From positions 186,001 to 250,000 of the forward strand of contig JAJYLN010000001.1 in assembly GCA_021787665.1 (NCBI GenBank): DNA of 64,000 bases. Direction: 5' to 3'. The first letter of the stretch is position 1. Each line of letters opens with the position of its first letter. Positions 1 to 21,221 of this stretch are shown here, piece after piece. Source of the stretch: a bacterium (GTDB taxonomy: Bacteria; JAMCPX01). Below the pieces are notes generated by a model. That model saw nothing but the letters and a program-made list of their open reading frames with translations, searched no databases and was not told the DNA's origin. The translations under genes and the position numbers were made by a program.

Positions 1-816
1 AGCCCATGTTATTCTTTTGTGAAGGCCCTTCTTTATGAGGAGATGCGACAGCTCCATTGCTCTTTTTTTGTCCAATAAGAATGTATCATCAATAAAGATG
101 AATTGCGTCGCATTATTTTTTATGCCCAATTCCATCTCTTCGATGACTCGTTCAGGACTCCTGTACCGGACCATTCTGCCGGCCAATCGGTGACAGAATT
201 TACATTGAAACGGGCATCCAAGCGTCATATAGGTCGGGAGTTCCAAGCCTGAAGTAAAATTCTGGATGGGATAATATCGTTCCAATGGTAATAGATCATA
301 GGAAGGAAGTGGCATTTTATTAAGATCTTCCAGGTAGGGCCGTGGAACTGTTATTTTTATTTCTCCACCGTCTCTGTATGCTATTCCTTTAATGGTCTCA
401 GGATTGGCATGTGATTGAAGGAGCTCAGGCAGTGTTTGTATCCCTTCTCCATATACCGCAAAATCAATGTGCGGGAATTCTAGCAGAGTTTCCTTCGGTA
501 AAGCTGTGGCATGAGCACCACCGACTATTGTTATTATCTTATTATCTATACCTTTTACAATTTCACACATTTTATGGACGTCGTTTATCTGTTCAGTAAC
601 GCTCGTAAACCCAACAGCGTCCGGGCTGAGCGACATTATTCGCTCTCTGAAACTGTTCATATCCAATCGCTCTGCCACACCATCAATAATGTTGACCTTA
701 ATCCCCCGTTCTCTGAGCGCGGACGCAAGCACTAATAATCCGTAGTGAATAATGGGCCTACGCACCAGCCGTTTGAACGGATCCCTAAGCAAGGGGAAAA
801 CAAGCGTAACTCTCAT
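1..816 (-). CDS. B12-binding radical SAM protein (partial, C-terminus beyond window)
   Basis: The minus strand is open without a stop from the ATG at 816 to the left edge, giving 272 codons of an N-terminal part. The start MRVTLVFPLL is followed by a Rossmann-like cobalamin-binding domain (GGAHATALP, then YGEGIQTLPELL) over about residues 1-140. The radical SAM cluster motif CPFQCKFC (CX3CX2C) lies near residue 200, followed by FIDDTFLLDKKRA. This order is typical of the cobalamin-dependent radical SAM family whose members methylate or rearrange unactivated carbons, often in lipids or sugars. It starts 13 bases after the stop of the next B12-rSAM gene at 830 and is probably co-transcribed with it. 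The substrate cannot be deduced. The ribosome-binding site is weak. Confidence 0.88.
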   Translation of the reverse strand, partial: MRVTLVFPLLRDPFKRLVRRPIIHYGLLVLASALRERGIKVNIIDGVAERLDMNSFRERIMSLSPDAVGFTSVTEQINDVHKMCEIVKGIDNKIITIVGGAHATALPKETLLEFPHIDFAVYGEGIQTLPELLQSHANPETIKGIAYRDGGEIKITVPRPYLEDLNKMPLPSYDLLPLERYYPIQNFTSGLELPTYMTLGCPFQCKFCHRLAGRMVRYRSPERVIEEMELGIKNNATQFIFIDDTFLLDKKRAMELSHLLIKKGLHKRITWA

Positions 817-829
817 TTCAGATCCATGC

Positions 830-2242
830 TTAATCATGTATCCTATTGATGGAGAGATTTTTAAAGATGAACCGGCGAAACAGGTAAGACATGAGTGTAC
901 CTAATCTCACGATCTTGAACATATTCATAAATTTTTGGGGCCTCAGATAAAATCTCATGTATGCCTTCCTCTGGAGTTTCTCAAGCTGATTTATGCTGAC
1001 CGTATCGAGCTCGAGCGACCTGCCGACGTGCTTGTTGTAATCCCTCCAATCGTTCGAGATCATCTTTAATCCTCCCCTGCCGTCTTTAACCATATCGATA
1101 AGTCCTGTCCCGGGAAACGGCGTTAGGACCGAAAACAATGCAGCGTCAATATCGAGGGAGTTAGCAAGATCGATAGTCCGATTGATGGAATCGACCGTAT
1201 CATAGGGGAGACCTATGATAAAATTGGCGTATATATCGATGCCTGCGTCCTTTGTCCATGTTATAGCATTTTTTATCTCTTCTATCTTAAGACCTTTCAC
1301 GGCCTTATCGAGTATCGCCTGATCACCCGACTCTATACCATAAGAAATTATCCTGCATCCAGCCTGCTGCATTTTTTTGAGCAGTGGTGCATGAACGACA
1401 TCGGCCCGTGTTGCGCAGTTCCATGTAATCTCTTTATGAATGCCCGTTTTGATCAATTCGTCGCAGATCGATTCTGCCCGCTTCATATTGATGGTAAAGG
1501 TATCATCCATAAACGTTATCCTGTTGGCATGATACACTTCAATATCTCTTATTATCTCATTGATAACCAAGTGCACATCTCTATACCTTATAATCTTGCC
1601 TATGGTCCTAAAACAGAAGACGCAATCGTAAGGGCAGCCTCTCGATGTCATGACCGGCAGCTCGGTGATTTTATGGTTCGGGAATACATAAAAAGGCCGG
1701 TATAATTTCAAGTCGAAACCTTCAAAATCGAGAGGAGGAAGTGCATTGACGTCGAGATACGGTCTTTGAGGAGTTACCACGACATCCTTGCCGTCCCTAT
1801 AAGCGATACCCTGGATACTTCTGAGGACATCCCTGTTGTTAGAAGCTATTGCCTTCAGCAGTTCCGGGAGTGTCAGTTCGCCCTCGCCATAGACAAGGTA
1901 GTCAAAGCTGCTGAATTCTTTCAGTGTTTGCTCCGGCAGCGCAGAGGCATGATAACCACCGAGTATCGTCTTGACCTCCGGCGACATCTCTTTAATTTTT
2001 TTTGCAAGTAATGACGCTTCGTAGACCTGCTCTGTCAGGGCTGTTAGACCTACGATATCCGGCTTTATCTTCTGTATCCTCTTTATCAGTTCCGCTCGTG
2101 AAAGACCTTCTGCAATGGCATCTATACTAGTAACATCGTATCCCTTTTGTCTCAGAATGGTAGCCATATAAATTATACCGATATGCGGAACAGACCAGCC
2201 GCCACGTGTAGAAAATGGCGGAATAATGAAAAGTATTTTCAT
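830..2242 (-). CDS. B12-binding radical SAM protein
   Basis: A full-length 470-residue protein. Residues 1-145 form the cobalamin-binding domain (start MKILFIIPPF, GGYHASALPEQTL, YGEGELTLPELL); there is no DXHXXG cobalamin-ligating motif, as in many members of this family. The radical SAM domain has CPYDCVFC (CX3CX2C) near residue 205, then GKIIRYRD, FMDDTFT, GIESGDQ and PFPGTGL. The protein closely resembles the one encoded at 7203-8594 through most of its length, so the two are paralogues. It sits downstream of the rSAM gene at 2327-3910 on the same strand with an 84-base spacer. Family knowledge suggests methyl transfer or ring chemistry on a lipid or glycan; the substrate is unknown. Confidence 0.9.
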   Translation of the reverse strand: MKILFIIPPFSTRGGWSVPHIGIIYMATILRQKGYDVTSIDAIAEGLSRAELIKRIQKIKPDIVGLTALTEQVYEASLLAKKIKEMSPEVKTILGGYHASALPEQTLKEFSSFDYLVYGEGELTLPELLKAIASNNRDVLRSIQGIAYRDGKDVVVTPQRPYLDVNALPPLDFEGFDLKLYRPFYVFPNHKITELPVMTSRGCPYDCVFCFRTIGKIIRYRDVHLVINEIIRDIEVYHANRITFMDDTFTINMKRAESICDELIKTGIHKEITWNCATRADVVHAPLLKKMQQAGCRIISYGIESGDQAILDKAVKGLKIEEIKNAITWTKDAGIDIYANFIIGLPYDTVDSINRTIDLANSLDIDAALFSVLTPFPGTGLIDMVKDGRGGLKMISNDWRDYNKHVGRSLELDTVSINQLEKLQRKAYMRFYLRPQKFMNMFKIVRLGTLMSYLFRRFIFKNLSINRIHD

Positions 2243-2279
2243 GGGGACAGAATAAAAGAAATAAGATTATTAGTCAATA

Positions 2280-2310
2280 GCTCCTCTGAATGATTGCTCC
2301 TCTGAATGAT
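2280..2310. repeat. 15-bp tandem duplication in spacer
   Basis: The 15-mer GCTCCTCTGAATGAT occurs at 2280-2294 and again at 2296-2310, separated by one T, in the spacer between two B12-rSAM genes. Nothing else was recognised in this spacer. Confidence 0.85.
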
Positions 2311-2326
2311 AAATGATGAAGTCCCC

Positions 2327-3910
2327 CTATTTAAACAATCTTTTCAGGACAAAAGAAGCAAGGGTGTCTATGTACCTGAGGGAATAGCTTGGTCTGAATT
2401 TGGTGGCGACATGAGAAACAGAGCATAGGTATTTGCCGAAATTCGGATTTATAAAACAGTAATTTTTACATTGAACCTTCATCATTTCTTTTTCCGAAGA
2501 GCCAGCCAGACAATATCCTCTGCTGAACCATGACCGTGCATGGTCTTTGTAATAATCAAGGAAGGTCTTTCTCGTTAAGACGATATTAAATTTCTCTGGA
2601 TAATAAAACATGGGTGAAGCCGGGTCAAGTTCCAGCGGGACAGTAATGACCTGTTTTATATTATTGTATTTTTTGAGCTGCTTCTGCAAGGTGACTGTTT
2701 CCTGAATATCCTTTCCTGTTTCCATCGGCAGTCCTCCGGAAAAATAAATACCTGTATTTACCCCTTTTTTCTCCATATAGCTCAGGGTCTGCAAAAAATC
2801 AGCGTTGGTATAAAAATAACCTTTATTGATTTTTCTCAGCCTCTCGGATCCGCTTTCCGGCGAGATAATTATCTGGGAATCTGCGGTGAACGTGGCGCTG
2901 AACTCGTCTATGAAATCAACGGACGGCAGCGCGTATGCGTTGAAGTTGTAAGTTATCTTGAGCTTATGATCTCGTATGGTTTTAAAAAGCTCTAAAAAGA
3001 ATTTCCTCGAGTTTTGTTCGGGAAGATCAAAATCCGTGTTGAAGCTTTTAAAACCCCACTGCAGACCTTCTCTTATGTTATCTACTATCCTTTCTGGCGA
3101 TCGTAACACGATCCGTGCTCTGCCGTTTATGATACCATTCGCATCATAGCCTCCGCCACAAAAGCTACAATTTGCCGTACAGCCCTTGCCGATCGGGAGA
3201 TACATGGATGCAACAAGGGAGCTCTTATAAATGATATCGTTTATGACCGGACTGGTGTTAAAGTTAAAGAAAAATAACTGCGGATAAAACTTGTAGTTCT
3301 CCATGAGAGAATAATTGCTGTAAGAAGCACTGTCCAATATCTCCTTGGTCGTTACATAATTCTGGGCATTTTGTACAACACTGCCGCTGTTCCGCCTCGT
3401 AAGATTGGGTACCGAAGCCATGTCGCCGCAATTTTTAACGATCTGATCGACTACCGCAAGAAGCGGGACTTCACCATCTCCGGCTATGATTGCATCGATG
3501 AATCCGAAGTTTTCCAGTATCTCGTCTTTAAAAAAGCTCGCTGTGAGACCACCCAGGACCAGAAATGTATCGGGTAAGACCCGCTTTACTTCTTTTGCAA
3601 TCTCGATAGCGTCAAACGACTGGTGATGCCAATGGAGCGCAACACCTACAACCTTTGGCTTTGTAGACAGGAGGTATTCCCGCAGAGAAAAGTCCTTTGT
3701 GAATAGCCTCTCGATACCGAGGTGCAAGACCCTGCTTTTGAATCCATGCCTTTGCAAGAAGTCTGCCATAAAAAGAAGGCCCATGGGCATAAGATTAATA
3801 AATTGTACCTTATTGAAGGGGTGTACATAATGGCTGAATTTGGGGGTATGTATAAGAAGGCAATCGAGGTTTCTGCTGTTATCATTGGGTGATACTCGTA
3901 CCATACTCAT
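2327..3910 (-). CDS. B12-binding radical SAM protein, divergent type
   Basis: A 527-residue protein with an N-terminal B12-binding-like domain (residues about 10-190: LLIHTPKFS, VLGGLTASFF, GDGEVPLL) and a radical SAM domain with CTANCSFC (CX3CX2C) near residue 265, then SPESGSERLR and a C-terminal cysteine-containing tail (CKNYCF, near residue 490). It is clearly less similar to the other rSAM proteins here than they are to one another. The start is either the ATG at 3910 or the third codon ATG at 3904; neither has a strong Shine-Dalgarno, and the 10-bp palindrome GACACGTGTC lies 5 bases upstream. A promoter and a leader ORF lie about 210-285 bases upstream. Its function is unknown beyond the family. 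Confidence 0.87.
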   Translation of the reverse strand: MSMVRVSPNDNSRNLDCLLIHTPKFSHYVHPFNKVQFINLMPMGLLFMADFLQRHGFKSRVLHLGIERLFTKDFSLREYLLSTKPKVVGVALHWHHQSFDAIEIAKEVKRVLPDTFLVLGGLTASFFKDEILENFGFIDAIIAGDGEVPLLAVVDQIVKNCGDMASVPNLTRRNSGSVVQNAQNYVTTKEILDSASYSNYSLMENYKFYPQLFFFNFNTSPVINDIIYKSSLVASMYLPIGKGCTANCSFCGGGYDANGIINGRARIVLRSPERIVDNIREGLQWGFKSFNTDFDLPEQNSRKFFLELFKTIRDHKLKITYNFNAYALPSVDFIDEFSATFTADSQIIISPESGSERLRKINKGYFYTNADFLQTLSYMEKKGVNTGIYFSGGLPMETGKDIQETVTLQKQLKKYNNIKQVITVPLELDPASPMFYYPEKFNIVLTRKTFLDYYKDHARSWFSRGYCLAGSSEKEMMKVQCKNYCFINPNFGKYLCSVSHVATKFRPSYSLRYIDTLASFVLKRLFK

Positions 3911-4121
3911 CTCTCGACACGTGTCAACCTTGTTTGTTTTAGTCCGAAGCGGAAGTAGTTTCCGATTTTCTGCTCTGTCCTTTTCATGCCGATATACTAT
4001 ACCGAACGACTTTGGGTAGTCTTATATGATCAACGAAAAATATAACCCTTCCGTCGAATAAAAACAAAATAATTCCCCGGCATAACTTGACCTCAGACTA
4101 TCAGAAGATCCGCGACTCTAT

Positions 4122-4145
4122 TTATCTTGGTGCAGGCCGCCACAT
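4122..4145 (-). CDS. Leader peptide MWRPAPR (copy 1)
   Basis: On the minus strand GAGGAG (4152-4157) is followed by ATG at 4145 and seven sense codons reading MWRPAPR, then TAA. The start lies 21 bases after a TATACT -10 element, so a transcript would begin only about 15 bases ahead of it. The same seven residues are encoded by different codons at 7062-7091 (CGG against AGA, CCT against CCG, GCA against GCT). Both copies precede a B12-rSAM gene; the stop here is 211 bases from the gene start at 3910. A role as an attenuating or ribosome-pausing leader is an inference; only the conservation and the signals are seen. Confidence 0.6.
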   Translation of the reverse strand: MWRPAPR

Positions 4146-4166
4146 ATTTTTCTCCTCGTATAGTAC

Positions 4167-4194
4167 AGTATAAAGAATTTTCAACGATTGTCAA
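4167..4194 (-). promoter_or_regulatory. Sigma-70-like promoter for leader and rSAM gene
   Basis: Read on the minus strand: TTGACA (4194-4189), a 16-base spacer, then TATACT (4172-4167). It points toward the MWRPAPR leader and the rSAM gene at 2327-3910. The -35 is perfect and the -10 matches 5 of 6. Confidence 0.7.
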
Positions 4195-4309
4195 ATAGTT
4201 TTTTTCTCTCTTGTTTTTTTCTCTCTATTTCCAATTTATCTTGCTCATCAAAGGGCTCTATACTACGATACTTGTACAGATATGATTACACAGGGGGAAT
4301 GTGCTCATA

Positions 4310-6856
4310 ATGAAACACCTTAAGAGGTTCTTGCCATACCTGATAGTCGCCCTCGTCTCTTATCTTTATCTGTCCCTGTACAGCCATTACCTGTTCGCCA
4401 CCAACCCGGGCAACGATGAGGGCCTGATGAGCGGGGCATGGAGGATCATGCACGGACAGATGATCTACAGGGACTTCTTCCAGGTGTTCTTCCCGGGGGA
4501 CTTCTACCTCATGGCATGGCTGTACAGACTGTTCGGATTCGGCATCGTAGTGTCCAACTATATCATTATTATCATGTCGTGTATAATCAGCGTCCTGCTG
4601 TATCATATATCGCGGCTCGTCATAAAAAGGTGGTATGCAGTCCTCGCGCCACTGCTCTTCCTGACCTTCGGATACACGGAATGGTTCACCCTCAACTATT
4701 ATATCCCATCTACCATTACGCTCCTGCTGGCCCTCATAGTCCTCGACAGGTTTATGCACACCGACAAGAGTCTCTATCTGTATCTAGCCGGCCTGCTCGC
4801 CGGGCTGACCATGTTGATATTGCAGTCAACCGGCGTATACATGATAGTTATCCTCACTCCTCTTATCTATTTCACCTATGTGCCAGGTACAGCAGGGAGA
4901 GATCAACAATCGGTCAGACGTCAGAGGCTCTATGCATCGCTGAAATTCCTATCAGGCGCAGCTGTGCCTTGTGTTCTCATGCTGGTGTTTCTGGCGGCAA
5001 ACGGGGCATTTCTGCCTTTCTTAAGGGACCAATACACATTGTTTGTCCTGTATCCAAAAATAAACCTGTTCTATATGAAGCCGGTCGCATCGCTAAGGTA
5101 TATTGTAGAGCCGCTGAAGCTGCTCTTTATTTTCACGCTTGCGGCAAGCCTTTTCCTCCTGTTCACAAAAAGATATCATTTACCTGAAGAACTTCTACTC
5201 TGTATTGGCAATATTATATTATTTTTAAATGTTCCTCATCACATTATGCTGGTCATTCCGGGAACTACCTATATAAACATGGGGTTGAGCATCGTATTCT
5301 CCGTGTATATCCTCTGGAGACTTGAGGAACTTCTCAAGAGGATTAGTTGGGAGCCAATCTTTCGGATTATCAGGAGGCTGTTCAGTATAGCGGCTTTTGC
5401 AGGTATTGGGGCAGTATGCGTACTTATGTTCCAAAACATGAGATTGATCGACACACAGGCCTATCATTTCAAACTTATGCATGAGCACCTATGGTCCTTC
5501 GACAGATACGGCGCATCAACGCTTGTTGACTTCATCAGTAAGGCCGACAGGATCATAGGCAGTGACAGAAATGTACTCGCCTATCCATTTGCTCCTCTCC
5601 TCTATTCTGTCATGAATATAGAAAATCCCACGGGATATGATTCAATTCCAAGCTTCGGAGTTAAGTATGGTGCCCCGAGATTCATGCTTGCAGACATCGT
5701 CAACAAGCTCAAAGCTTCGCACAATAAATATATAATTATACACAATTGGTCTTACTCGACACTTATGCGCCTCTATAAAATGAACAATATGAAGTTCCAT
5801 CCCAATGTATTGGAAAAATTTATATTGGAGCACTATCAAAGTGTCCTCACTATCGGTAATTTCTCCTTGTTAAAGTTTACGACCTCTGCACGTGCCTCTT
5901 TTGTGGAAGTCCTTCTTATCGGCGCAGTCAAAAGCACAGGTGTTTTTACCCTTCTTGCGGATAACAACAAGACCACTCCGACCCTCTTAGACCTTTTAAA
6001 ATATGCAGGCGTGGTCAGACAAAGAGCCGATTTCAGCAACATAATTATAATCCGGAACGGCGAAGAGCGGATCGTAGACTTGACCAAGTATTTTCAAACA
6101 GGCGATCAACGCTATAACCCGCGTCTGTATGATCATACTGTGATCTATGTTCCGGGCAACACTGCCCCTCTCGATTCAAAACGAAACATGAAGCTCATTG
6201 AAGATTTTCTTAAAATAGACTTTCAGCAGAGCAGCCACATACTCATGAACAGCAATGGAATTCATTCAGGCAATATCGTTCAGAAGACCATATCTGTTAC
6301 TATTGCCGGCGACGTGCAGCATGCAGGTAGCTTTACGCTCGACAAGGGTGCGAGGCTTGCGAATGCCTTCACCATGACAGGCAGGCACCTGCAAACAGCG
6401 GATTACAGCAAAATCGTCATCCTGCGGCATGACCATTTGATAAAGGCGAACCTTTTACGCTATGTACGGACAAAGAACCATGTCTATAACCCGATTCTCC
6501 ATGACAACGATTTTATTTATTTCCCCGTCGTCAGATACAAGACCATCTCGATAATCATTATCGGCGCTGTGAAGCATACCGGGGACTTCACCTTGCGCGA
6601 GCATACGAGACTGGCAGATACCTTTACCCTGACCGGCGGACCGCTTCCCGCATCGAACCTCAGCCGCATCGCTATCCTGAGACACGGCAGACTGATAACA
6701 ACTAACTTTCTAAACTATATACAGATGAAGAATGCTGCCGACAACCCACTTCTGCAGAATAATGATATTGTGTATGTGCCCAAGGGCAACGAGCGTCCTG
6801 ATACCGACTACATTAAACAGCTGGTACATGGCACCACCTCTGGTGCCGGGAAATAG
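4310..6856 (+). CDS. GT-C type membrane glycosyltransferase fused to three SLBB domains
   Basis: An 848-residue protein. Residues 1-390 are a polytopic membrane region with an acidic DEG motif in the first loop and a FFPGDFYLMAWLY segment, as in PMT_2/ArnT-like GT-C enzymes that use polyprenyl-phosphate sugars. About residues 390-530 are a soluble, presumably periplasmic, domain. Three SLBB-type beta-grasp domains follow at about 530-620, 660-742 and 744-828, each with the signature I-I-G-V-x-H-x-G-x-F-T-L, an A/G-rich helix and N-N-D-I-V-Y-V-P. SLBB domains normally belong to Wza-like polysaccharide export proteins, so this fusion is unusual. The start is taken at ATG 4310 (GGGGG 12 bases upstream); a GTG at 4301 is possible but too close to the Shine-Dalgarno. 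The N-terminal part is homologous to the proteins at 8605 and 19497. Confidence 0.85.
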   Translation: MKHLKRFLPYLIVALVSYLYLSLYSHYLFATNPGNDEGLMSGAWRIMHGQMIYRDFFQVFFPGDFYLMAWLYRLFGFGIVVSNYIIIIMSCIISVLLYHISRLVIKRWYAVLAPLLFLTFGYTEWFTLNYYIPSTITLLLALIVLDRFMHTDKSLYLYLAGLLAGLTMLILQSTGVYMIVILTPLIYFTYVPGTAGRDQQSVRRQRLYASLKFLSGAAVPCVLMLVFLAANGAFLPFLRDQYTLFVLYPKINLFYMKPVASLRYIVEPLKLLFIFTLAASLFLLFTKRYHLPEELLLCIGNIILFLNVPHHIMLVIPGTTYINMGLSIVFSVYILWRLEELLKRISWEPIFRIIRRLFSIAAFAGIGAVCVLMFQNMRLIDTQAYHFKLMHEHLWSFDRYGASTLVDFISKADRIIGSDRNVLAYPFAPLLYSVMNIENPTGYDSIPSFGVKYGAPRFMLADIVNKLKASHNKYIIIHNWSYSTLMRLYKMNNMKFHPNVLEKFILEHYQSVLTIGNFSLLKFTTSARASFVEVLLIGAVKSTGVFTLLADNNKTTPTLLDLLKYAGVVRQRADFSNIIIIRNGEERIVDLTKYFQTGDQRYNPRLYDHTVIYVPGNTAPLDSKRNMKLIEDFLKIDFQQSSHILMNSNGIHSGNIVQKTISVTIAGDVQHAGSFTLDKGARLANAFTMTGRHLQTADYSKIVILRHDHLIKANLLRYVRTKNHVYNPILHDNDFIYFPVVRYKTISIIIIGAVKHTGDFTLREHTRLADTFTLTGGPLPASNLSRIAILRHGRLITTNFLNYIQMKNAADNPLLQNNDIVYVPKGNERPDTDYIKQLVHGTTSGAGK
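6290..6735 (+). repeat. SLBB-encoding DNA repeat, copy A
   Basis: This stretch encodes the second and third SLBB domains and is highly similar at DNA level to about 10774-11219 in the next GT-C gene (offset 4484). Bases 6374-6471 are identical to 10858-10955 (98 of 98), including synonymous positions, while flanking parts diverge. This indicates recent duplication or gene conversion. Confidence 0.85.
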
Positions 6857-7010
6857 TAAATGACGATGAGTTGCAGTGCAGGCTGAAAGTGGTTCTATTT
6901 CTGTCTGGCCTATCTGCATCGGTATGCCGGTGGACTTAATACTGAAAGGCGGAACATAACATCAGGTGTTTGACATCATGTGGCTGTCCCTGCCTGTGGC
7001 TGTCCCTGCC

Positions 7011-7039
7011 TTGACATTATCTCCTATTTTACTTATTCT
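7011..7039 (+). promoter_or_regulatory. Sigma-70-like promoter for leader and rSAM gene
   Basis: TTGACA (7011-7016), a 17-base spacer, TATTCT (7034-7039). It lies 22 bases before the MWRPAPR start codon, almost the same geometry as the minus-strand copy at 4167-4194. Confidence 0.65.
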
Positions 7040-7061
7040 CCTTAAAAAGGAGGGAGTTGCT

Positions 7062-7091
7062 ATGTGGAGACCGGCTCCAAGAATAAATTAA
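7062..7091 (+). CDS. Leader peptide MWRPAPRIN (copy 2)
   Basis: AAGGAGG (7048-7054) is followed 7 bases later by ATG 7062 and nine codons reading MWRPAPRIN, then TAA. The first seven residues equal those of the minus-strand mini-ORF at 4122-4145, with different synonymous codons, and both follow a TTGACA promoter at the same distance. The downstream gene is a B12-rSAM protein 111 bases further on. Conservation of the peptide rather than the DNA argues for selection on translation; the regulatory role is inferred. Confidence 0.62.
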   Translation: MWRPAPRIN

Positions 7092-7202: not shown

Positions 7203-8594
7203 ATGAAAATACTCTTTATAATACCTCCGTTTTTGTCAGAGGAAAAAGCCTTTACGCATACCCCCCAGGTTGTCCTGTATCTCGGAATGGCCTACCTTTC
7301 TGCATTTTTAAAACATGAAAAATACGAAGTCCATATTATTGATGCAATTGCTGAAGGGCTATCGAAACAAGCGCTTCTCAAAAAGGTTGCCGAAATAAAG
7401 CCTGCTGTTGTTGGCCTGACTTCTCCGACACAGCAAATCTACGATGCAGCGGTTGTCGCAAAAGAAATCAAAGATATGTTTCCAGAGATTAAAACAATTA
7501 TTGGAGGCTATCATGCATCTGCCCTACCAGAGCAAACACTAAAAGAATTTAATAGCTTTGACTATCTTTTGTACGGTGAAGGCGAATTGACTCTGCCAGA
7601 ATTGCTGGCAGCAATAACTACCGACAAGGATGATATACTTAAAAATATAAAAGGGATCGTCTATAGAGACGGTAATAGAATTATTGTAAACCCTCCACGA
7701 CCGTATATTGACATAAATGTGTTACCGATGCCCGACTTCGACGGCTTTAATTTAAACCTATACAAACCATTTTATACCTTTTTTAATAAAAAACTATTGG
7801 AGCTTCCCATCATGACATCAAGGGGTTGTCCTTATAATTGTGTTTTTTGTTTTAGAACAAATGGTAAGAGCGTAAGGTATAGAAATTTGCAGTCAGTGAT
7901 AGATGAGATAAAGAGAGACATAGAAATTTATCATATTAGCCATCTTCTGTTCGTCGATGAAACATTTACTTTGAGTATGAAGCGTGCCGATGCCCTGTGC
8001 GATGAATTGATCAGGACTGGTATAAACAAACAGATAACGTGGGGATGCGAGACGAGGGCTGATCTCGTTGATGAAGCATTGCTCAAGAAAATGAAGCAGG
8101 CAGGATGCAGATTCATATCTTACGGAGCTGATTCAGGGGATCAGGAGATACTCAATTATGCTGAAAAGAGCATGAAGGTGCATGATATTAAGAATGCCGT
8201 GCAATGGACAAAACAGGCTGGCATAGATGTATACACTAATTATGTCATAGGTCTGCCATATGATACTGTTGACACAATAAATAAGACCATAGACTTTGCC
8301 ATAGGGCTTGATCCTACTGGCCTATCATTCACAATATTAACACCGTTTCCAGGGACCGAGGTCGTTGTTATGGCCGAAAACGGTGTGGGTGGATTAAAGA
8401 TACTATCATATGATTGGAGAGATTATGGAAAACAGCTCGGCAGTGCACTTGAACTTGAGAAAATTAGCAGGAAACAACTTGAGAAACTTCAAAGGAAGGC
8501 ATATTTGAAATTTTATACAAATCCAAGGAAAATTGCAACGATGTTTAAAACTGTAGGGCTGCGGGCAATAATATCGTACCTTTCCTATAGATAA
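7203..8594 (+). CDS. B12-binding radical SAM protein
   Basis: A 463-residue paralogue of the protein at 830-2242. The cobalamin-binding domain occupies residues 1-145 (MKILFIIPPF, GGYHASALPEQTL, YGEGELTLPELL) and the radical SAM motif CPYNCVFC lies near residue 210, followed by VDETFT, GADSGDQ and PFPGTE. The gene is noticeably AT-rich compared with the window average, as is the first half of the next gene, suggesting joint acquisition. Only 10 bases separate it from the GT-C/SLBB gene at 8605, so the two are surely co-transcribed and probably act on the same polymer or lipid carrier. The substrate is unknown. Confidence 0.9.
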   Translation: MKILFIIPPFLSEEKAFTHTPQVVLYLGMAYLSAFLKHEKYEVHIIDAIAEGLSKQALLKKVAEIKPAVVGLTSPTQQIYDAAVVAKEIKDMFPEIKTIIGGYHASALPEQTLKEFNSFDYLLYGEGELTLPELLAAITTDKDDILKNIKGIVYRDGNRIIVNPPRPYIDINVLPMPDFDGFNLNLYKPFYTFFNKKLLELPIMTSRGCPYNCVFCFRTNGKSVRYRNLQSVIDEIKRDIEIYHISHLLFVDETFTLSMKRADALCDELIRTGINKQITWGCETRADLVDEALLKKMKQAGCRFISYGADSGDQEILNYAEKSMKVHDIKNAVQWTKQAGIDVYTNYVIGLPYDTVDTINKTIDFAIGLDPTGLSFTILTPFPGTEVVVMAENGVGGLKILSYDWRDYGKQLGSALELEKISRKQLEKLQRKAYLKFYTNPRKIATMFKTVGLRAIISYLSYR

Positions 8595-8604
8595 ATAATA
8601 AAGA

Positions 8605-13638: not shown

Positions 13639-14999
13639 AGGCCGTCATCGTCCTATTCGTTGTAGGCTGGCTTACCGGGTATTTCATGCTCTCGATCCTT
13701 GATTTAAGAAAATACTCGAAAGGCGTGATCATGCAGGTGCTGGTCGATTATGCAGCAGGGGCCGGCACAGTAACGCTGCTTATGTTTGCAACAGCCGTAA
13801 CGACCGGGAGCCTCAACAACGAGGTAATCTATGTGCTTGTTCTCTGTCTCTTCATAGTATACCTGACCATGACAGGGGGCCCGGCACGGGTAACGGCGCA
13901 CAGGCCCCCGTACGATATAAAGCAATACCTCTATCTCATACCGGCCCTGATAGTGGTCATCCCTATGGTCGCTCTTTCCTACAAGGCTGTCCCCCTTGGA
14001 TGGGACACGAGATTTATCTACCTTTTCAGAGCGAAGATGCTCTTTGTCGAAGGCCAGCTCCGGACAGCCTCTTTTACTGAACCGCAATACCTGTTCGCTC
14101 ACCCTGACTATCCCCTGAACATACCGCTCCAGATCGCCTACCTGTATCAGTTGCTCGGCCGCATTGCTCCGGACGCCGGGAAGCTCGTCCTCATGACGTA
14201 CCTCCTTTTGATATTCCTCTTTATGTACAGCTTCCTGAAATCCATGATGCCCGCATACGCTGCCGTACTATCGGCCCTTACATTCTTCACGCTGAGGAGG
14301 GTGATGGGACTGGCATACACGGGCATCGATCTCCCGCTCGCCCTGTACATCCTCATCGGCACCTCATTCTATTATCTCTATATAAGGGACGGCGACGTCC
14401 ATTACGTAGTGCTCTCCGGTCTGTTGCTCGGTATCGGTGCATGGACAAAGCTCGAGGGGATTACCTATTTTATGGGAACAGCTCTATGTATATGCATCTT
14501 TACCAGGTACCATCTCAAAAAGCCCCTCTCTGTATCGTTTAAGCGTATGACCTGTTTCCTGCTGCCAGGGCTTACCTTCATAGTACCATGGCAGATATTT
14601 ATCCACAGCGACCACTTTCCGGTAAACTGGATTGTGAAGGGCCGAGGCGCTACTTCCCTGACCACTGCTTTCTCACGACTATGCAAAATTTCTGAATATT
14701 TTGGAAGGGAAATAGTGTTCAACGAGCCTTTCTTTGCCATCGTTGCACTGTCCCTGATCTACATGGTCTTTAAAAAGAAATCAGGGCTCTTCCTCTCTGT
14801 ATCTGCGGTATTCATGCTTCAACTCATTGCATACATTATCGCACTCTATCTCCAGCCGAACCCCCTTTCTGCGGAACTCGGGGTCACGGTGCAAAGGCTG
14901 TTGCTACAGATAACACCGTCGATCCTGCTGGTAAGCCTCGCCCTGCTCTTTGACCCCACCGGTAAAGACTTAACAAAGGACACCGTTCATGAGTCATAG
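13635..14999 (+). CDS. Polytopic membrane protein, GT-C glycosyltransferase-like
   Basis: A 454-residue protein with about 10-11 hydrophobic segments. A WDTRFIYLFRAKMLF segment followed by FAHPDYPLNIPLQ resembles the acidic loop and the DYP motif of ArnT/PMT-like and related putative GT-C enzymes, but no family is certain. It is translationally coupled on both sides: ATGA overlap with the TMTC-like gene and an 11-base overlap with the YfhO-like gene at 14989. The context says it belongs to the same glycan assembly pathway. No SLBB tail is present. Confidence 0.7.
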   Translation: MKAVIVLFVVGWLTGYFMLSILDLRKYSKGVIMQVLVDYAAGAGTVTLLMFATAVTTGSLNNEVIYVLVLCLFIVYLTMTGGPARVTAHRPPYDIKQYLYLIPALIVVIPMVALSYKAVPLGWDTRFIYLFRAKMLFVEGQLRTASFTEPQYLFAHPDYPLNIPLQIAYLYQLLGRIAPDAGKLVLMTYLLLIFLFMYSFLKSMMPAYAAVLSALTFFTLRRVMGLAYTGIDLPLALYILIGTSFYYLYIRDGDVHYVVLSGLLLGIGAWTKLEGITYFMGTALCICIFTRYHLKKPLSVSFKRMTCFLLPGLTFIVPWQIFIHSDHFPVNWIVKGRGATSLTTAFSRLCKISEYFGREIVFNEPFFAIVALSLIYMVFKKKSGLFLSVSAVFMLQLIAYIIALYLQPNPLSAELGVTVQRLLLQITPSILLVSLALLFDPTGKDLTKDTVHES

Positions 15000-17361
15000 A
15001 TACAGGCTTTTACTGGCATGCTCTGTCCTTGGAGCAACCCTCCTTATACTCTTTTCGCATGCGATCTTTACCGATAAAATAATGCTTGTGTCCAATTTCC
15101 ATCAGACTAATCCGTTCTTTACGGTAAAGGGCGTATCGGCATTCCCGGTAGAGCCATTCGATACGGTCAATCAGTTTCTGCCGTGGTTCCACTTCGACAG
15201 GGAATCCCTGAGAAACCTCACCCTTCCGCTGTGGAACCCATACAATGGCTGTGGAGCGCCCTACATGGCAAACATGCAGTCCGCATTGTTTTACCCCCTT
15301 AATCTGTTCATATACCTTTTTAACTGGAAATGGGGGCTGCTGCTCCTGTACTTCTTTAAATTCTTTTTAGTCGGGCTTTTCTCATACCTCTATTTGACCG
15401 AGGTTGGTACGGACTATCGCGCAGCGACCGTTGTATCGATAGCCGCCATGTATTCTGGCTTTATGAGCATGTTCGAATTCCAGATGACCGGTGCGGCATT
15501 CTGCTTCTTCCTCGGCTTATGGTCGATAGAGCTCATAGTTCGGCATCCCGATAGATTCAAAGGATATGTTTGGCTCATGATCGGATTTGTCGTTGCCGTG
15601 TTTACAGGGCACCCGGAGATACTGTTCTTCATGACGTTTGTGCTCGCTCTGTATCTTTTAATCAGGCTCTTTGATCAACACGGATTCCATAAAAAGTCAT
15701 ATCTTATTATAGCGAAAACGGGCCTGGTTGCATGCATCGGTGTCCTTATATCGGCAATCCAGTTGCTGCCGTTTATCCAATACTTGCATGCGAGCACGAC
15801 ATTTATATCACGATCATCGGGCACGGCGCCCTTTTACCCTTTCTCGCTAATTCTGCCGGTAGTAGGAAATTTTTTCGCCCAGCATATTATTACCATACAC
15901 ACACCGCAAAACTGGATCAACGCCGGGCTGAACTATATCGGTATCGTATGCTTTCTCTTCGGCATTGCAGGTGTAATGAGCCTTTTCAAAGAGAGGCTCA
16001 TAAAGACCTACTCTGCATTATTCATAGTTACTTTGGCTATACCATTCAATATACCCGTTCTCCACGATATATTCGCCAATATACCTGGCTTTACTGTCGC
16101 TGAAAAGAGCCATTTATGGATATTCTCGGGCTACCTGCTGATGCTCGTAGGAGCAAGATACCTCGATGCCCTCCTCAACCGGAAATGCAGCACGAAGGCA
16201 TTGCACGTAGCGATATACATCACACTATCCATAGTCCTCGCCTTGTTTTTGATGTCCGGGGCCTACTACAGGCTCAATATGCAACTCGTCTACATGGTAT
16301 TACTTATGATCATAGCAGTCCTCTTTGTAACGAAATTAAAGAACAAAAACGCCGTTGCCATACTACTTGGTATTATAACCTTCATACCAACGGCATTCAT
16401 GGCCACCTCTCTATCGCTTCTGGCGCCCCGATACTTTTTCCCGACCAATACCATCATCGACAGGATAAAACAGGATGCATCTATATTCCGTGTAGTCCCT
16501 TTGATGAAAGACGGCATAAAGGCATGGGAACCGGACCTGAACACCTTCTATGGCATAGAAGACCCCAGGAACTACGACACCATGGGTATACGGTGGTACG
16601 ACAAGCTTGTTCTGAGTTCCCTGACCGAGCCAGGCATCATAAACTTTTTGAACGTAAAATATCTTATTTCCCCGGGAGCGGTGGCCCTCGCTCAGGCATC
16701 GGCTTACCGATCACGAATCCCGGAGACTGTACTCAAAAAAAACAACACGATAAGCACCTATGGGAACAGGAATTCCTTCGATATCGATATGTCTGTGCAG
16801 GGATTCAAGGCCGTCGCTTCGGCCAACGGCTTTACGCTTTATGAGAACCCCTCTGTATTCGACAGGGCATTCATGGTCTATGATTACAAGGTAGCTCATA
16901 CCCATGACGAGGCCTTCGACCTTGTAAAGGAGTATGCCTCGCAATTGAGCACGACAGCGGTCGTCTTCAGGGATGAAGCACGGTATACCTCAGGTATACC
17001 TGACGCTGCTGGCGGAGTGCCCACCGGTGCGGCTGTGGGCATAATGCAAGGGAAGACACCGGCCCACAAGGTAGCATTCGAGAAGTACACGCCGAACGAC
17101 ATAAAGATGCGTGTGTCTACTTCTTCACCAGGGCTTCTTGTCATAAGCAATGCTTATTTCCCTGGCTGGCACGCGTACATCGATGGCAAAAAGTCCAAGG
17201 TCATACGAACAGACTATGCGTTTCAGGGGGTATTCGTGCAGAAGGGACGGCATGAGGTAGAGATTGACTATCTGCCCCTGAGCTTTATCATCGGGCTCAT
17301 CCTCTCGGGGGTGGGTATCGCGGCTGTCCCTTTGCTCTATATCCTGTGGTTCCGGTCATGA
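14989..17361 (+). CDS. YfhO-family membrane protein
   Basis: A 790-residue protein with about 12-13 membrane segments and a C-terminal extracytoplasmic domain. The N-terminal loop LPLWNPYNGCGAPYMANMQS and the C-terminal segment YFPGWHAYIDGK, followed by QGVFVQKGRHEVE and a last membrane helix, are characteristic of the YfhO family (putative GT-C proteins; Gram-positive relatives glycosylate lipoteichoic acid or help bacteriocin production). In this Gram-negative setting it more likely decorates an envelope polymer; that is an inference. It overlaps the preceding gene by 11 bases and the next rSAM gene by four (ATGA). Confidence 0.85.
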   Translation: MSHRYRLLLACSVLGATLLILFSHAIFTDKIMLVSNFHQTNPFFTVKGVSAFPVEPFDTVNQFLPWFHFDRESLRNLTLPLWNPYNGCGAPYMANMQSALFYPLNLFIYLFNWKWGLLLLYFFKFFLVGLFSYLYLTEVGTDYRAATVVSIAAMYSGFMSMFEFQMTGAAFCFFLGLWSIELIVRHPDRFKGYVWLMIGFVVAVFTGHPEILFFMTFVLALYLLIRLFDQHGFHKKSYLIIAKTGLVACIGVLISAIQLLPFIQYLHASTTFISRSSGTAPFYPFSLILPVVGNFFAQHIITIHTPQNWINAGLNYIGIVCFLFGIAGVMSLFKERLIKTYSALFIVTLAIPFNIPVLHDIFANIPGFTVAEKSHLWIFSGYLLMLVGARYLDALLNRKCSTKALHVAIYITLSIVLALFLMSGAYYRLNMQLVYMVLLMIIAVLFVTKLKNKNAVAILLGIITFIPTAFMATSLSLLAPRYFFPTNTIIDRIKQDASIFRVVPLMKDGIKAWEPDLNTFYGIEDPRNYDTMGIRWYDKLVLSSLTEPGIINFLNVKYLISPGAVALAQASAYRSRIPETVLKKNNTISTYGNRNSFDIDMSVQGFKAVASANGFTLYENPSVFDRAFMVYDYKVAHTHDEAFDLVKEYASQLSTTAVVFRDEARYTSGIPDAAGGVPTGAAVGIMQGKTPAHKVAFEKYTPNDIKMRVSTSSPGLLVISNAYFPGWHAYIDGKKSKVIRTDYAFQGVFVQKGRHEVEIDYLPLSFIIGLILSGVGIAAVPLLYILWFRS

Positions 17362-18839
17362 ACGTCCTATTGATCCAGCCCCCGGCATACCTAAGTAAGT
17401 CAAGAGAGCTCGGACAGAAACAATTGAGCACGAATATAGGTCTTGCCTATATCGCTTCTTATATCAGGGAGAAGGGTACAGAGGTGAGCATACACGATGC
17501 AACCATCCGGAAATTCGATCCGTCCGTCTTCAGGGAGATCATACGGGAGCGGCGGCCCGGCATCGTGGGTATCTCCGCCTTCACGACCCAAATAGCTGAT
17601 GCGAGCTACCTTGCAGGGCTGATTAAATCGATAGACAGCCGTATCACCACGGTCATCGGCGGCGCGCACGCGAGTGCGATACCCGAGCAGACGCTCGAAG
17701 AATTCGGGGCGTTCGATTATGCCGTCTTCGGCGAGGGTGAAGAGACATTCTATAGATTGATCCTGTACCTGTCCGGGAAAGGCGTGTTCGATGACAAGGG
17801 GCTGTGCTACAGGGCTGACGGACATATAAGAAAAGGTAGTAACAGGCCTTTGATTGAAAATATCGACAGCATACCGATGCCGGCATTCGACCTATTCACC
17901 CTGGCGCACTATAAGCCGCAGTATTCGCATAACAGGGGATTGTCCCTGCCGATACTGACGTCAAGGGGCTGCCCATACGGATGCACATTCTGCTCCGGGC
18001 CACTCGGCAGGAGGATAAGGTTCCACTCGGTCGAGCGGATCATAGGCGAGCTCAAGGCAGACATTGCCGTGTACCATCCACAACAGATCCTCGTCGCTGA
18101 CGATACATTCACGGTAAATAAAGCCAAGGTCATCGATCTCTGCGACCGAATCGTCCGGGAAGGCATCCATCGGGAGGTCGAGTTTATATGCGAAACGCGA
18201 GTCGATCTTGTGGACAGGGAAATTTTCGAATCGATGAAAAGGGCCGGCTTCAGAAGCGTCAGCTTCGGTATAGAGTCAGGTGACGCGTACATACTTGATA
18301 AGGCCCTGAAGAAGATAACGCCTGCACAGGCCCGCAGCGCTGTTGCTGCTGCAAAACAGGCCGGGCTGGAGGCAGACGGTAATTTTATCCTCGGACTACC
18401 TTATGATAACAAGGAATCAATCATGAAGACTATAGGCTTTGCGTGTTCGCTGCCCCTTGACTATGCCAGTTTCTTCCTGCTCGTCCCGTACCCCGGGACA
18501 GAGGCAGCAAGGATGGCAGAAAACGACGAGGGTGGCCTGGTGCTCCTGTCGAAGGACTGGACCAGGTACGGCAAGCAGACTGGCGGTGTTCTGACCCTGT
18601 CGGGTATGAGCTACGACAGGCTTAAGGCCTATCAACTGTATGCTTACCTCAGGTTTTATCTCCATCCAAGGCGGTTCTTTAATATACTGAAAAGGGTCAC
18701 ACCATTGACCATTGTCCTGTTTGCGCTTCAGATGGTAAAGACCTTTTTTAGAAAGGGACCAGCACCCCCCTCTATACGAGCATCGAATATAAGTTCGACC
18801 AATTCGCAGGACCGCCCCTGTCCTCCGTCATCTTCTTAA
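17358..18839 (+). CDS. B12-binding radical SAM protein with extended C-terminus
   Basis: A 493-residue protein from ATG 17358, which overlaps the preceding stop as ATGA; a GTG at 17346 is less likely. The cobalamin domain (MNVLLIQPP, GGAHASAIPEQTL, FGEGEETF) is followed by CPYGCTFC (CX3CX2C) near residue 205, then DDTFT, GIESGD and PYPGTE. The last 25 or so residues (after TFFRK) are proline/serine-rich, unlike any paralogue, and are translated from DNA that on the other strand is the end of a truncated rSAM gene. The native stop was therefore probably lost at a deletion junction near 18770. The core of the enzyme looks intact. Confidence 0.88.
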   Translation: MNVLLIQPPAYLSKSRELGQKQLSTNIGLAYIASYIREKGTEVSIHDATIRKFDPSVFREIIRERRPGIVGISAFTTQIADASYLAGLIKSIDSRITTVIGGAHASAIPEQTLEEFGAFDYAVFGEGEETFYRLILYLSGKGVFDDKGLCYRADGHIRKGSNRPLIENIDSIPMPAFDLFTLAHYKPQYSHNRGLSLPILTSRGCPYGCTFCSGPLGRRIRFHSVERIIGELKADIAVYHPQQILVADDTFTVNKAKVIDLCDRIVREGIHREVEFICETRVDLVDREIFESMKRAGFRSVSFGIESGDAYILDKALKKITPAQARSAVAAAKQAGLEADGNFILGLPYDNKESIMKTIGFACSLPLDYASFFLLVPYPGTEAARMAENDEGGLVLLSKDWTRYGKQTGGVLTLSGMSYDRLKAYQLYAYLRFYLHPRRFFNILKRVTPLTIVLFALQMVKTFFRKGPAPPSIRASNISSTNSQDRPCPPSSS

Positions 18840-19500
18840 ACGACGGATTGAAGCAATACGAGCATGCGTTCGGGCATCCCCTGCCACTGATGAACCTCTT
18901 CAGAGGGAAGTCCCGTATGAACCTGTATCTGTAGTAAACCTCTCTGTCCGGCAGGGGCATCGCGTTGAGATCGGTAAGTGGTCCCATGGAGTTCTTATAT
19001 AGGGTGCCCCCATGCTTCACCCAAATACTGTGAACAGAGGTAATATCGCCACCGGACCCGAGCCTCTGCAGAAACTCCGGTACTGCATAGTCAGCCTCTC
19101 CCCTGAGTATCGCATCGACGCCTTCTTCGTCGATAGCATCGTTGAAGAACGTCGGGTACGTGCCTGTAAGCATGCACAGGACCCGGGGCATGGCCGATTT
19201 TATCCTCCGGGTCATAGCTATGCCCCATTGCGGCCTTATAATGGAGGTCGGGATGATAACCACGGACGGATTGTACGCGGCTGCAACCTTCAGGAAGTCG
19301 CCTTCCTCCCTTTCGATCAGTACCCGGTAGGGATAGCCCTGCTCCCTCAGAATGCCCGCAAGCTCGGTAAGGGCAAGCGACTCATTGATGGCGTTGTCCT
19401 GTACGAACAGGACTCTTACCGGCGATTTAGGCCTAACATCTTCGTTTATCATGTTATAGTATAGCATGCTGGCATTAAAATTTCCTGTTAACTTGTTCAA
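18772..19500 (-). CDS. C-terminally truncated B12-binding radical SAM protein (probable pseudogene)
   Basis: Only 242 residues. A B12-binding-like domain (VRVLFVQDNAI, EADYAVPEFL) leads to the radical SAM motif CPNACSYC near residue 213, and the frame ends about 25 residues later, so almost the whole catalytic barrel is missing (paralogues are about 460-530 residues). Its 3' end overlaps the opposite-strand rSAM gene by 68 bases. The start overlaps the stop of the upstream GT-C gene by four bases (19497-19500), so it was once the second gene of a GT-C/rSAM operon. It is unlikely to be active unless the short form has another role. Confidence 0.75.
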   Translation of the reverse strand: MNKLTGNFNASMLYYNMINEDVRPKSPVRVLFVQDNAINESLALTELAGILREQGYPYRVLIEREEGDFLKVAAAYNPSVVIIPTSIIRPQWGIAMTRRIKSAMPRVLCMLTGTYPTFFNDAIDEEGVDAILRGEADYAVPEFLQRLGSGGDITSVHSIWVKHGGTLYKNSMGPLTDLNAMPLPDREVYYRYRFIRDFPLKRFISGRGCPNACSYCFNPSFKKMTEDRGGPANWSNLYSMLV

Positions 19501-21221
19501 GGCACTGGATTTTTCATCTGCAAGAGCATAAAGCCATCGTTTGAAATAACGGGCGTGTAATGACCCAGTATGAAATTATCGAGTATATTCGGCGTATACT
19601 GCATGCCGAGCGAGCGGGAGACTGCCCGGAACACATTGGGTGCCCAGTCATAGGTTATAACGAACCGTACCGGCATGCTTTTCAAACGTCGTATGGCATC
19701 CACGAGTATACTATCGGGGGTACCTTTATCATTCCCGAGCTTTATCAGAATATCGTACTTTAGGGGATCCTGCAGATTAAGCAGGGTATAAAGGATGGGG
19801 GAGTAAGGATAGACAAGCGCCGTGCGGTCCCCGCCCATGATCCGTTCCGCTTTTCCGGAAAAGTCAGCCAGCGCTTTACCCATCTGTCTGTTGAATGTCC
19901 ACAACCGTACGTTGTTGACGGTAAAATGATAGGCATCCTTCTGTACTCGCTTCGCGCCGGCGAAAAGCGCGGAGCAGATAACTATGATTATGATGGTTGC
20001 AACGATGCCGATAAGCCTTTCCACCCCTTTATACAACAGCACCCATAATCTCGGCTTCAGATAGCCGAGTAACAGCGTGAACAGCCAAACATACATTATG
20101 ATAGCACAAGGCACATTAACAGGCACAACGCTCATGGGGTTATAGAGTAGTCTCTGCCCTGTATTTAAAAACAGGACTGCACAACCTATAAACAGTATTA
20201 TGTGCTCGGGGGGGGTATTTTTTTTAAACGCCAGAAAGTACAAACTGACGATGCCTGGAACACTGAACAAAAGCACAAGCATGAGCACCTTTTGGGGCCA
20301 TCCTGTTACAACCCCCCGAAAGAGCATGTCCAACGAAAAGGTCGTAAACTCCCATGCCCGTGCTGCAAGGACCTCGTTCTGCACGAAATCGTGGAACGCA
20401 CCCTTGGCGGCCATATAGGAAAAAGCGACTGTCAAGACAGAAAAGACAGCTATCGTGAAGTAACCCATGGGTCTGAGGCCGGGCCATCGCACGGCATTTT
20501 TCGGACCTTTCTTTGTCCCCTGCTCTCCCCCGGCCGTACCGTCTATCCCCGTCCCGTCCGGCTCCATGCCCCCTCGGTATCTGCCCCTGCTATCCATAAA
20601 AATAACGAACAGAAACACACCCAGGGCTATCACCCCCTTCGTTTGAAGAAACAGCGTCGTGAGCCCCACACAGGCGCCCGCCCCCCATAGGGCCACGATC
20701 GATCGCCGGTCGAGATATGCATAGAGACAGATCAATGAAGCGAAGAACATCGCCATACTGTTTACATAATGGCTGTATCCCATGACGGCTGTGCTTCCAA
20801 AGACAAGGAACAGCAAGGGCGGTATGACGGCGAACCATCTCTTGACGATGATCCTCGACAGACGGTAGATGAGCAGGTCCGAGACGACGTCTATGATCAC
20901 TACGAACTCACGGGTAACAGCGAAGCTGTAGCCGAATATCTTGTAAACGAGCGCAAGGAGGTAGTAATTGCCCGGGAATAGAATGGCACCGATGTCCTTG
21001 TACAGCACCTTGCCGTGCAATATCTGATAGGCCCTGTACGGGAACATCCCCTCGTCTTCCGTGGGTGTCGGAAGATAATATTTGTACAGGTGCAGGTAGG
21101 TATAGCTGAGGAGAGCTATGATGATGTACGGTACGACCCGCCGCAATCCCAGATGAGCTCTGTTATACAGAGACCCCTGATTCTTTTTATCGTGTTTTCC
21201 GGTGAGGGTCATAACATGCAT
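19497..21221 (-). CDS. GT-C type membrane protein without SLBB tail
   Basis: A 574-residue polytopic protein homologous to the membrane halves of the proteins at 4310 and 8605: TEDEGMFPYRAYQILHGK, ILFPGNYYLLALVYKIFGY and IIVKRWFAVIPPL match closely. The acidic DEG in the first loop is retained. A glycine-rich low-complexity cytoplasmic loop (about residues 215-240) is peculiar to this copy. It ends with the soluble domain and has no SLBB domains. The start may be ATG 21221 or the internal ATG four codons on; neither has a good ribosome-binding site. It is coupled to the truncated rSAM gene downstream. Confidence 0.8.
   Translation of the reverse strand: MHVMTLTGKHDKKNQGSLYNRAHLGLRRVVPYIIIALLSYTYLHLYKYYLPTPTEDEGMFPYRAYQILHGKVLYKDIGAILFPGNYYLLALVYKIFGYSFAVTREFVVIIDVVSDLLIYRLSRIIVKRWFAVIPPLLFLVFGSTAVMGYSHYVNSMAMFFASLICLYAYLDRRSIVALWGAGACVGLTTLFLQTKGVIALGVFLFVIFMDSRGRYRGGMEPDGTGIDGTAGGEQGTKKGPKNAVRWPGLRPMGYFTIAVFSVLTVAFSYMAAKGAFHDFVQNEVLAARAWEFTTFSLDMLFRGVVTGWPQKVLMLVLLFSVPGIVSLYFLAFKKNTPPEHIILFIGCAVLFLNTGQRLLYNPMSVVPVNVPCAIIMYVWLFTLLLGYLKPRLWVLLYKGVERLIGIVATIIIIVICSALFAGAKRVQKDAYHFTVNNVRLWTFNRQMGKALADFSGKAERIMGGDRTALVYPYSPILYTLLNLQDPLKYDILIKLGNDKGTPDSILVDAIRRLKSMPVRFVITYDWAPNVFRAVSRSLGMQYTPNILDNFILGHYTPVISNDGFMLLQMKNPVP

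What the first reader, a model, noticed from the sequence alone, without database searches (positions are those of the whole stretch)
1..21221. Recurrent pairing of B12-radical SAM and GT-C genes
Six B12-rSAM genes and five GT-C/YfhO-like genes are interleaved, with three tight pairs: 7203/8605 (10-base gap), 14989/17358 (ATGA overlap), 19497/18772 (ATGA overlap). Known B12-rSAM enzymes methylate hopanoids, aminoglycosides and other lipids or sugars. The repeated coupling suggests a pathway in which the radical enzyme modifies a polyprenyl-linked sugar or lipid acceptor used by the partner transferase. I know of no named pathway with this set.
Basis: partly seen in the sequence, partly recalled or inferred. 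Interest (0 to 1): 0.7.

Follow-up and report, generated by a model that had tools for sequence, protein, structure and literature searches.

The report
Glycan island: radical-SAM genes, membrane glycosyltransferases

Summary
The window's first 21 kb hold six B12/radical-SAM genes and six (not five) GT-C-like genes, in a low-GC island (45.8% against 57.1%) that continues at least 14 kb upstream. The co-localisation is not chance: it recurs in the sister genome and a second genus, and outside the family such rSAMs have a GT-C next door about 5 (strict Pfam) to 10 times more often than expected, though only roughly one in six does. The tight pairs are weak. 7203/8605 and 18772/19497 are not kept in the sister genome, and the rSAM at 18772 has lost its radical barrel. 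Only YfhO/17346 persists in the genus. I found this fusion only in three genomes of one family (376 searched, not exhaustively). Most likely the island makes or decorates an envelope glycan: GT2 and rSAM enzymes prepare lipid-linked sugars or acceptors in the cytosol, and GT-Cs, tethered to the polymer by SLBB domains, transfer them in the periplasm. No substrate is shown.

The parts
1..837 (-). B12-binding radical-SAM gene, N-terminal part; continues upstream in L008:19362-20000
   Evidence: PF02310 78.9 bits, PF04055 35 bits; CxxxCxxC
830..2242 (-). B12-binding radical-SAM gene; orthologue 70% in G001 beside the 2327 orthologue
2327..3910 (-). B12-binding radical-SAM gene of another subtype (best NCBIfam TIGR04190, below cutoff); divergent from a GT-C/SLBB fusion in all three genomes that have the fusion
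4301..6856 (+). PMT_2-type GT-C with C-terminal SLBB domains (about 535-619, 661-748, 746-834)
   Evidence: Pfam PF13231 33 bits, PF22461 54 bits; own HMM
7203..8594 (+). B12-binding radical-SAM gene, 10 nt before 8605; G001 orthologue (L152:9235, 76%) has no GT-C beside it
8605..11340 (+). GT-C with Poly_export (522-577) and three SLBB domains; C-terminal half models as Wza-like
11419..13638 (+). GT-C-like membrane protein with weak TPR match and one C-terminal SLBB domain
13635..14999 (+). GT-C-like membrane protein, no Pfam match in the protein scan; orthologues in G001 and G004
14989..17361 (+). YfhO-family membrane protein
   Evidence: PF09586 68.8 bits
17346..18839 (+). B12-binding radical-SAM gene; likely start 17358 (ATGA overlap with YfhO); pair with YfhO kept in G001
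18772..19500 (-). remnant of a B12-binding radical-SAM gene: 792-nt in-frame internal deletion against L046:7874-9340
19497..21221 (-). PMT_2-type GT-C without SLBB; orthologues stand without an rSAM neighbour in G001 (L036) and G004 (L039)
6281..6580 (+). 300-nt direct repeat in the SLBB array of 4301
   Evidence: 89% to 10765-11064
10765..11064 (+). second copy of the 300-nt repeat, in the SLBB array of 8605

Best explanation
This is an envelope-glycan island that grew by duplication of two gene classes. GT2 enzymes of the ArnC/GtrB/CsbB kind (one lies upstream, L008:4846-5793) would charge polyprenyl phosphate with a sugar. Cytosolic B12/radical-SAM enzymes would alter that sugar, its nucleotide precursor or a lipid acceptor by C-methylation, deoxygenation or ring chemistry. 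GT-C proteins (PMT_2/ArnT-like and YfhO-like) would transfer the sugar on the periplasmic face. In 4301, 8605 and 11419 the C-terminal SLBB (and Poly_export) domains would hold the transferase to the polysaccharide being exported, or to its export machinery. Shown here: gene content, domains, recurrence, loss of one barrel, exchange of SLBB segments. Inferred: substrates, sidedness, order of steps.
For: Domains. One acidic EL1 residue is invariant in the eight aligned fusions (E40 of 4301) and a DE pair is present in six of eight. SLBB parts match solved Wza by sequence (E 6.6e-11) and by Foldseek on the model's better half. rSAMs resemble BchE and HpnJ models (210 and 188 bits, below cutoffs) and AprD4, OxsB and TokK structures, of which the first two act on a sugar and a nucleotide (AprD4 recalled; OxsB from PMC13142503). 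A GT2 gene (PF00535) lies beside an island rSAM in both G000 and G001. The mixture recurs in G001 and G004 and outside the family. Precedent: CsbB/GtcA/YfhO puts GlcNAc on lipoteichoic acid from C55-P-GlcNAc (PMC7389260, passages).
Against: No substrate, lipid or sugar is known. Two of three tight pairs are not conserved in the sister genome. Most outside-family rSAMs (72 of 86) have no GT-C neighbour. Thirteen GTDB loci with related GT-Cs have no SLBB, and none has a strong rSAM match (one weak, 44 bits). The membrane half of the model is of low confidence, and a crude positive-inside count did not settle topology.
Confidence: 0.55

Rival explanations
1. Shared neighbourhood only: rSAMs and GT-Cs both accumulate in variable surface-polysaccharide islands and work on different products; their adjacency is a by-product of island assembly and duplication.
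For: Flat GT-C rate out to six genes and a similar rate for weaker rSAM relatives, 3 of 21 anchors; partners switch: the 17346 type sits with YfhO in G000 and G001 but with a 4301-type GT-C in G004, and the 7203 orthologue stands alone in G001; GT2 genes are equally common neighbours.
Against: 14 of 15 outside-family adjacencies are same-strand and seven of those overlap by 4-52 nt; the 18066/15582 pair keeps a 3-nt gap in both G000 and G001, and the 2327 type is divergent from a fusion GT-C in all three genomes that have the fusion.
Confidence: 0.3
2. The rSAMs modify membrane lipids (hopanoid, ladderane or tetraether kind of chemistry) and the GT-Cs glycosylate these lipids as headgroups.
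For: HpnJ and ladderane-type models are among the better NCBIfam matches, all below cutoff.
Against: No hopanoid or lipid biosynthesis gene was identified among the island genes that I scanned; SLBB/Poly_export fusions point to polysaccharide.
Confidence: 0.12
3. A decaying paralogue cluster with little present function.
For: In-frame loss of the barrel at 18772; SLBB-only protein L008:10136; recombined SLBB segments.
Against: Long intact frames and about 62-84% protein identity between G000 and G001 for most members with an orthologue.
Confidence: 0.03

Closest known systems
CsbB/GtcA/YfhO lipoteichoic-acid glycosylation (and ArnC/ArnT, GtrB/Gtr; the latter recalled)
   Same: GT2 plus polytopic GT-C-like transferase using a polyprenyl-phosphate sugar; YfhO family present here
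   Different: No GtcA flippase identified in the island; B12-rSAM genes and SLBB fusions added; unlikely to be a Gram-positive lipoteichoic acid
OPX polysaccharide exporters (Wza; three classes of PMC9603273)
   Same: Poly_export and SLBB domains, sequence and Foldseek match to Wza
   Different: OPX classes begin with Poly_export (GfcC first in two small subclasses); here the domains follow a GT-C membrane half, and 4301 and 11419 have no Poly_export match
BchE/HpnJ-like Cbl-dependent radical-SAM enzymes
   Same: B12-binding plus radical-SAM architecture, CxxxCxxC, best NCBIfam models
   Different: Scores far below equivalog cutoffs; substrates unknown
AprD4 (6fd2), radical-SAM enzyme of apramycin biosynthesis
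   Same: Best solved-structure match to the rSAM profile (E 1.3e-32)
   Different: Match covers only the radical-SAM half (profile 170-392)

Membership tests
GT-C glycosyltransferases (PMT/ArnT type) | PMT_2 or PMT domain over Pfam cutoff | tested here: inconclusive
   Met for 4301 and 19497; 8605 none in the protein scan; 11419 and 13635 only by genome search, 28.5 (over cutoff) and 24.3 bits (below)
GT-C glycosyltransferases (PMT/ArnT type) | Acidic residues in the first extracytoplasmic loop | tested here: met
   Glu invariant in all eight aligned fusions; DE pair in six, spaced acidic residues in 8605 and L042:4897; catalytic role is recalled
GT-C glycosyltransferases (PMT/ArnT type) | Use of a lipid-phosphate sugar donor | not testable with these tools
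   needs biochemistry
YfhO family | PF09586 over cutoff | tested here: met
   14989-17361, 68.8 bits against 28.5
OPX exporters | N-terminal Poly_export then SLBB, exported protein | tested here: not met
   Domains are C-terminal to a membrane GT-C; Poly_export found in 8605 and L008:15582 only
OPX exporters | SLBB domains | tested here: met
   PF22461 in 4301, 8605 and 11419
Cbl-dependent radical-SAM enzymes | B12-binding domain, Radical_SAM domain and CxxxCxxC | tested here: met
   830, 2327, 7203, 17346
Cbl-dependent radical-SAM enzymes | Same, for 18772-19500 | tested here: not met
   barrel deleted, both Pfam scores under cutoff
HpnJ | TIGR03471 cutoff 577.6 bits | tested here: not met
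   best 188.1 bits
BchE | TIGR02026 cutoff 481.35 bits | tested here: not met
   best 210.1 bits
Cbl-dependent radical-SAM methyltransferases | Methyl transfer through methylcobalamin | not testable with these tools
   BchE, HpnJ and OxsB show that relatives need not methylate (PMC13142503, passages)

The most novel reading that the evidence does not exclude
A lineage-specific envelope pathway in which the periplasmic glycosyltransferase carries its own Wza-like export module, so that radical-modified, lipid-linked sugars are added to the polymer as it enters the export channel. Segments of the export module are exchanged between paralogues, and each transferase works with interchangeable radical enzymes that vary the sugar.
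Probability: 0.15. Interest if true: 0.78.

Novelty: new variant of a known kind. Interest (0 to 1): 0.5.

Why it matters
B12/radical-SAM enzymes are a very large pool of enzymes, most without known substrates (recalled). A repeatable link to lipid-linked-sugar transferases would give a whole subgroup a testable class of substrate. The GT-C fused to exporter domains would, if real at the protein level, put sugar transfer and polymer export in one molecule, which I found described in neither of the two SLBB/OPX papers that I consulted by passages.

Tried and rejected
Rejected: (1) strict one-to-one pairing, because pairs 7203/8605 and 18772/19497 are not kept in G001 and one rSAM lost its barrel; (2) HpnJ, BchE or any named NCBIfam identity, because scores lie below cutoffs; (3) calling the fusions OPX proteins, because a defining feature is not met.

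Led nowhere: the single-protein scan of genome contigs found no relative; the rSAM structure model had mean pLDDT 56.5 with four sequences and was not used; a simple positive-inside count was inconclusive; literature searches for the rSAM/GT-C link or the SLBB/GT-C fusion gave no paper whose listing described either (listings only, except the papers named in the report; subscription papers and most preprints are not held).

Limits of the counts: outside-family regions were picked by me from the top rows (about 150 rows shown, more not listed), leaving out rows at contig ends or overlapping a chosen region; one fetched region (L089) gave no recognised rSAM frame. GT-C calls there used my own profiles. 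Of the 17 distinct adjacent proteins (14 first tier, 3 second tier), Pfam supports 8 at or over cutoff and 2 below it, and finds no GT-C domain in 7. Own-family loci were chosen for their GT-Cs, so that part is biased and is not used as evidence; one search replaces it. In one search only two candidates per genome were scored, so absence of the fusion elsewhere is not proven. In one search the background is an even spread of PMT_2 hits; frames outside roughly 400-650 aa were dropped by me.
Full report
WHAT IS THERE. The window is G000:C15:186001-250000 of a 2.25-Mb, 35-contig assembly, 92.66% complete. Its sister genome G001 has contigs of 48,396 and 63,639 bases, the same lengths as contigs of the MAG Deltaproteobacteria bacterium FK_Sedi_A_Bin.102, so I take them to be the same. 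Positions 1-21221 have 45.8% GC against 57.1% for the rest of the window, and upstream sequence down to about L008:5800 has 44.8%. The island therefore runs over at least 35 kb. Upstream it holds four more radical-SAM frames (L008:5847, 11300, 18066, 19362, the last being the rest of the gene at window 1-837), a YfhO-like gene, a GT-C with Poly_export and SLBB domains (L008:15582), an SLBB protein without GT-C (L008:10136), and at its edge a GT2 gene (L008:4846) and asparagine synthase (L008:2941).

CHECK OF THE FINDING. Six B12/radical-SAM frames are present, one of them a remnant, and six GT-C-like frames rather than five. The 10-nt gap 7203/8605 and the ATGA overlap at 17358 are real. The third overlap is TTGA. 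The frame at 18772-19500 aligns with an intact 488-aa orthologue in G001 (L046:7874-9340) except for an in-frame gap of 792 nt, which I computed from the two BLASTN segments. It keeps the B12-binding part and the CxxxCxxC loop but not the barrel, so the pair 18772/19497 contains no complete radical enzyme. In G001 the orthologue of 19497 stands elsewhere without an rSAM (L036), and likewise in G004 (L039).

THE MISSED FEATURE. 4301 and 11419 carry C-terminal SLBB domains, and 8605 carries Poly_export plus SLBB; my own profile shows three SLBB stretches in 4301 and in 8605 and one in 11419. A profile of eight fusions matches solved Wza over the SLBB part (best E 6.6e-11). The model of 8605 has mean pLDDT 57.8, with about 70-85 in most of 505-911. 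Foldseek puts Wza chains first (E 5.6e-9 to 5.2e-8) and also lists a GT-C enzyme, AftA (E 7.8e-4); linear-ubiquitin chains, which share the beta-grasp fold (recalled), follow. The TM-scores are low because the domains are badly placed. The SLBB parts of 4301 and 8605 are 79% identical in protein against 37% for the GT-C parts, and hold a 300-nt repeat at 89%, which points to recent exchange. Among 376 genomes searched with the fusion profile, matches spanning both halves were listed only for G000, G001 and G004 (two candidates scored per genome, listing cut). A GTDB scan gave 15 loci: two from the G001 MAG with the fusion, and 13 others without SLBB and without a strong rSAM neighbour, one having a 44-bit rSAM match about 6 kb away.

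IS THE ASSOCIATION RECURRENT? Within the family, by coordinates, B12-rSAM frames with a PMT_2 hit within 5 kb number 6 of 17 in G000 (0.68 expected), 6 of 16 in G001 (0.84) and 10 of 29 in G004 (2.01), but 0 of 26 in the six other family genomes together (0.84). Hits in one cluster are not independent. Outside the family I fetched 60 regions around the best hits of the rSAM profile. Of 86 rSAM anchors, 14 have a GT-C-like gene as next neighbour, 23 within two genes and 27 within three. PMT-type neighbours by my profile: 12 of 164 adjacent positions against 1.14 expected from each genome's PMT_2 count. Counting only those that Pfam itself calls PMT_2 at E<=0.001 leaves 6 against 1.14, about 5-fold, Poisson 0.0012. 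Fourteen of the 15 adjacencies are same-strand, and seven of those overlap by 4 to 52 nt. A second set of 20 regions around weaker hits gave 3 of 21 anchors, no different from the first, so the link belongs to this broad rSAM class and not to the window's close relatives. The GT-C rate stays near 8-9% from one to six genes away, apart from 5% at four, and GT2 genes fill 19 of 164 adjacent positions. The general rule is thus rSAMs inside glycan clusters, with close coupling in a minority.

WHICH PAIRS LAST? From: YfhO/17346 is kept in G001 (37-nt gap); in G004 the 17346 orthologue (63%) is 6 nt from a 4301-type GT-C instead. L008:18066/15582 is kept in G001, with a 3-nt gap in both. The 2327 type is divergent from a fusion GT-C in G000, G001 and G004, and at E<=1e-40 is found in no other family member (12 of 376 genomes match in all). 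7203/8605 is not kept: the G001 orthologue of 7203 (76%) has no GT-C beside it, and the nearest relatives of 8605 in G001 and G004 (L035, L042) have no rSAM in the fetched stretch and sit near a gene whose N-terminus I read as CTP synthase (recalled motif). Partners are therefore interchangeable.

HOW IT MOST LIKELY WORKS. Established precedent: CsbB (GT2), GtcA and YfhO decorate lipoteichoic acid from C55-P-GlcNAc (PMC7389260, passages). Cbl-dependent radical-SAM enzymes include methylases and also HpnJ, OxsB and BchE, which do not methylate (PMC13142503, preprint, passages). Inference: a GT2 (L008:4846; also G001 L034:6011) loads polyprenyl phosphate; cytosolic rSAMs alter the sugar, its precursor or a lipid acceptor; GT-Cs transfer it outside. 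SLBB domains are predicted to contact the polymer (PMC9603273, passages) and would keep the GT-C on its acceptor. That the C-terminal half is periplasmic follows from ArnT topology (recalled) and from the nature of SLBB domains; my own count did not settle it.

COMPARISON AND NOVELTY. The parts are known kinds (GT-C, YfhO, GT2, Cbl-rSAM, SLBB). The fusion of a GT-C with SLBB/Poly_export is not among the three OPX classes in the passages of PMC9603273 and was not seen in the passages of PMC1796856. Seven literature searches listed no paper on either the fusion or the rSAM/GT-C link. I file it as a new variant of a known kind, a lipid-linked-sugar glycosylation island, and not as an OPX system or a named rSAM pathway.

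Noticed in passing
window 6281-6580 and 10765-11064: 300-nt repeat at 89% between SLBB arrays of two paralogues whose GT-C halves are only 37% alike in protein: recent segment exchange.
   Followed up: partly
L155 (G004:C46) and L161 (G008:C117): Clusters of several rSAM genes, shared by the two genomes at 88-94% protein identity for some members, in different genera of one family: possible lateral transfer.
   Followed up: no
L043 and L044 (G004:C29, C5): Arrays mixing several GT-C genes with four rSAM genes each, more elaborate than the window's own island.
   Followed up: partly
window 47258-49642: Protein with TPR repeats followed by a C-terminal Ser/Thr protein kinase domain.
   Followed up: no
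window 21496-21954: 152-aa frame matching part of DUF4143, probably a gene remnant between the island and mazG.
   Followed up: no
L008:8848-9807: Protein with a long internal heptad-like coiled-coil repeat inside the island.
   Followed up: no
G000:C7:20188-22389 (L013) and G001:C66: A second, unlinked rSAM/PMT_2 divergent pair kept in both genomes of the genus.
   Followed up: partly
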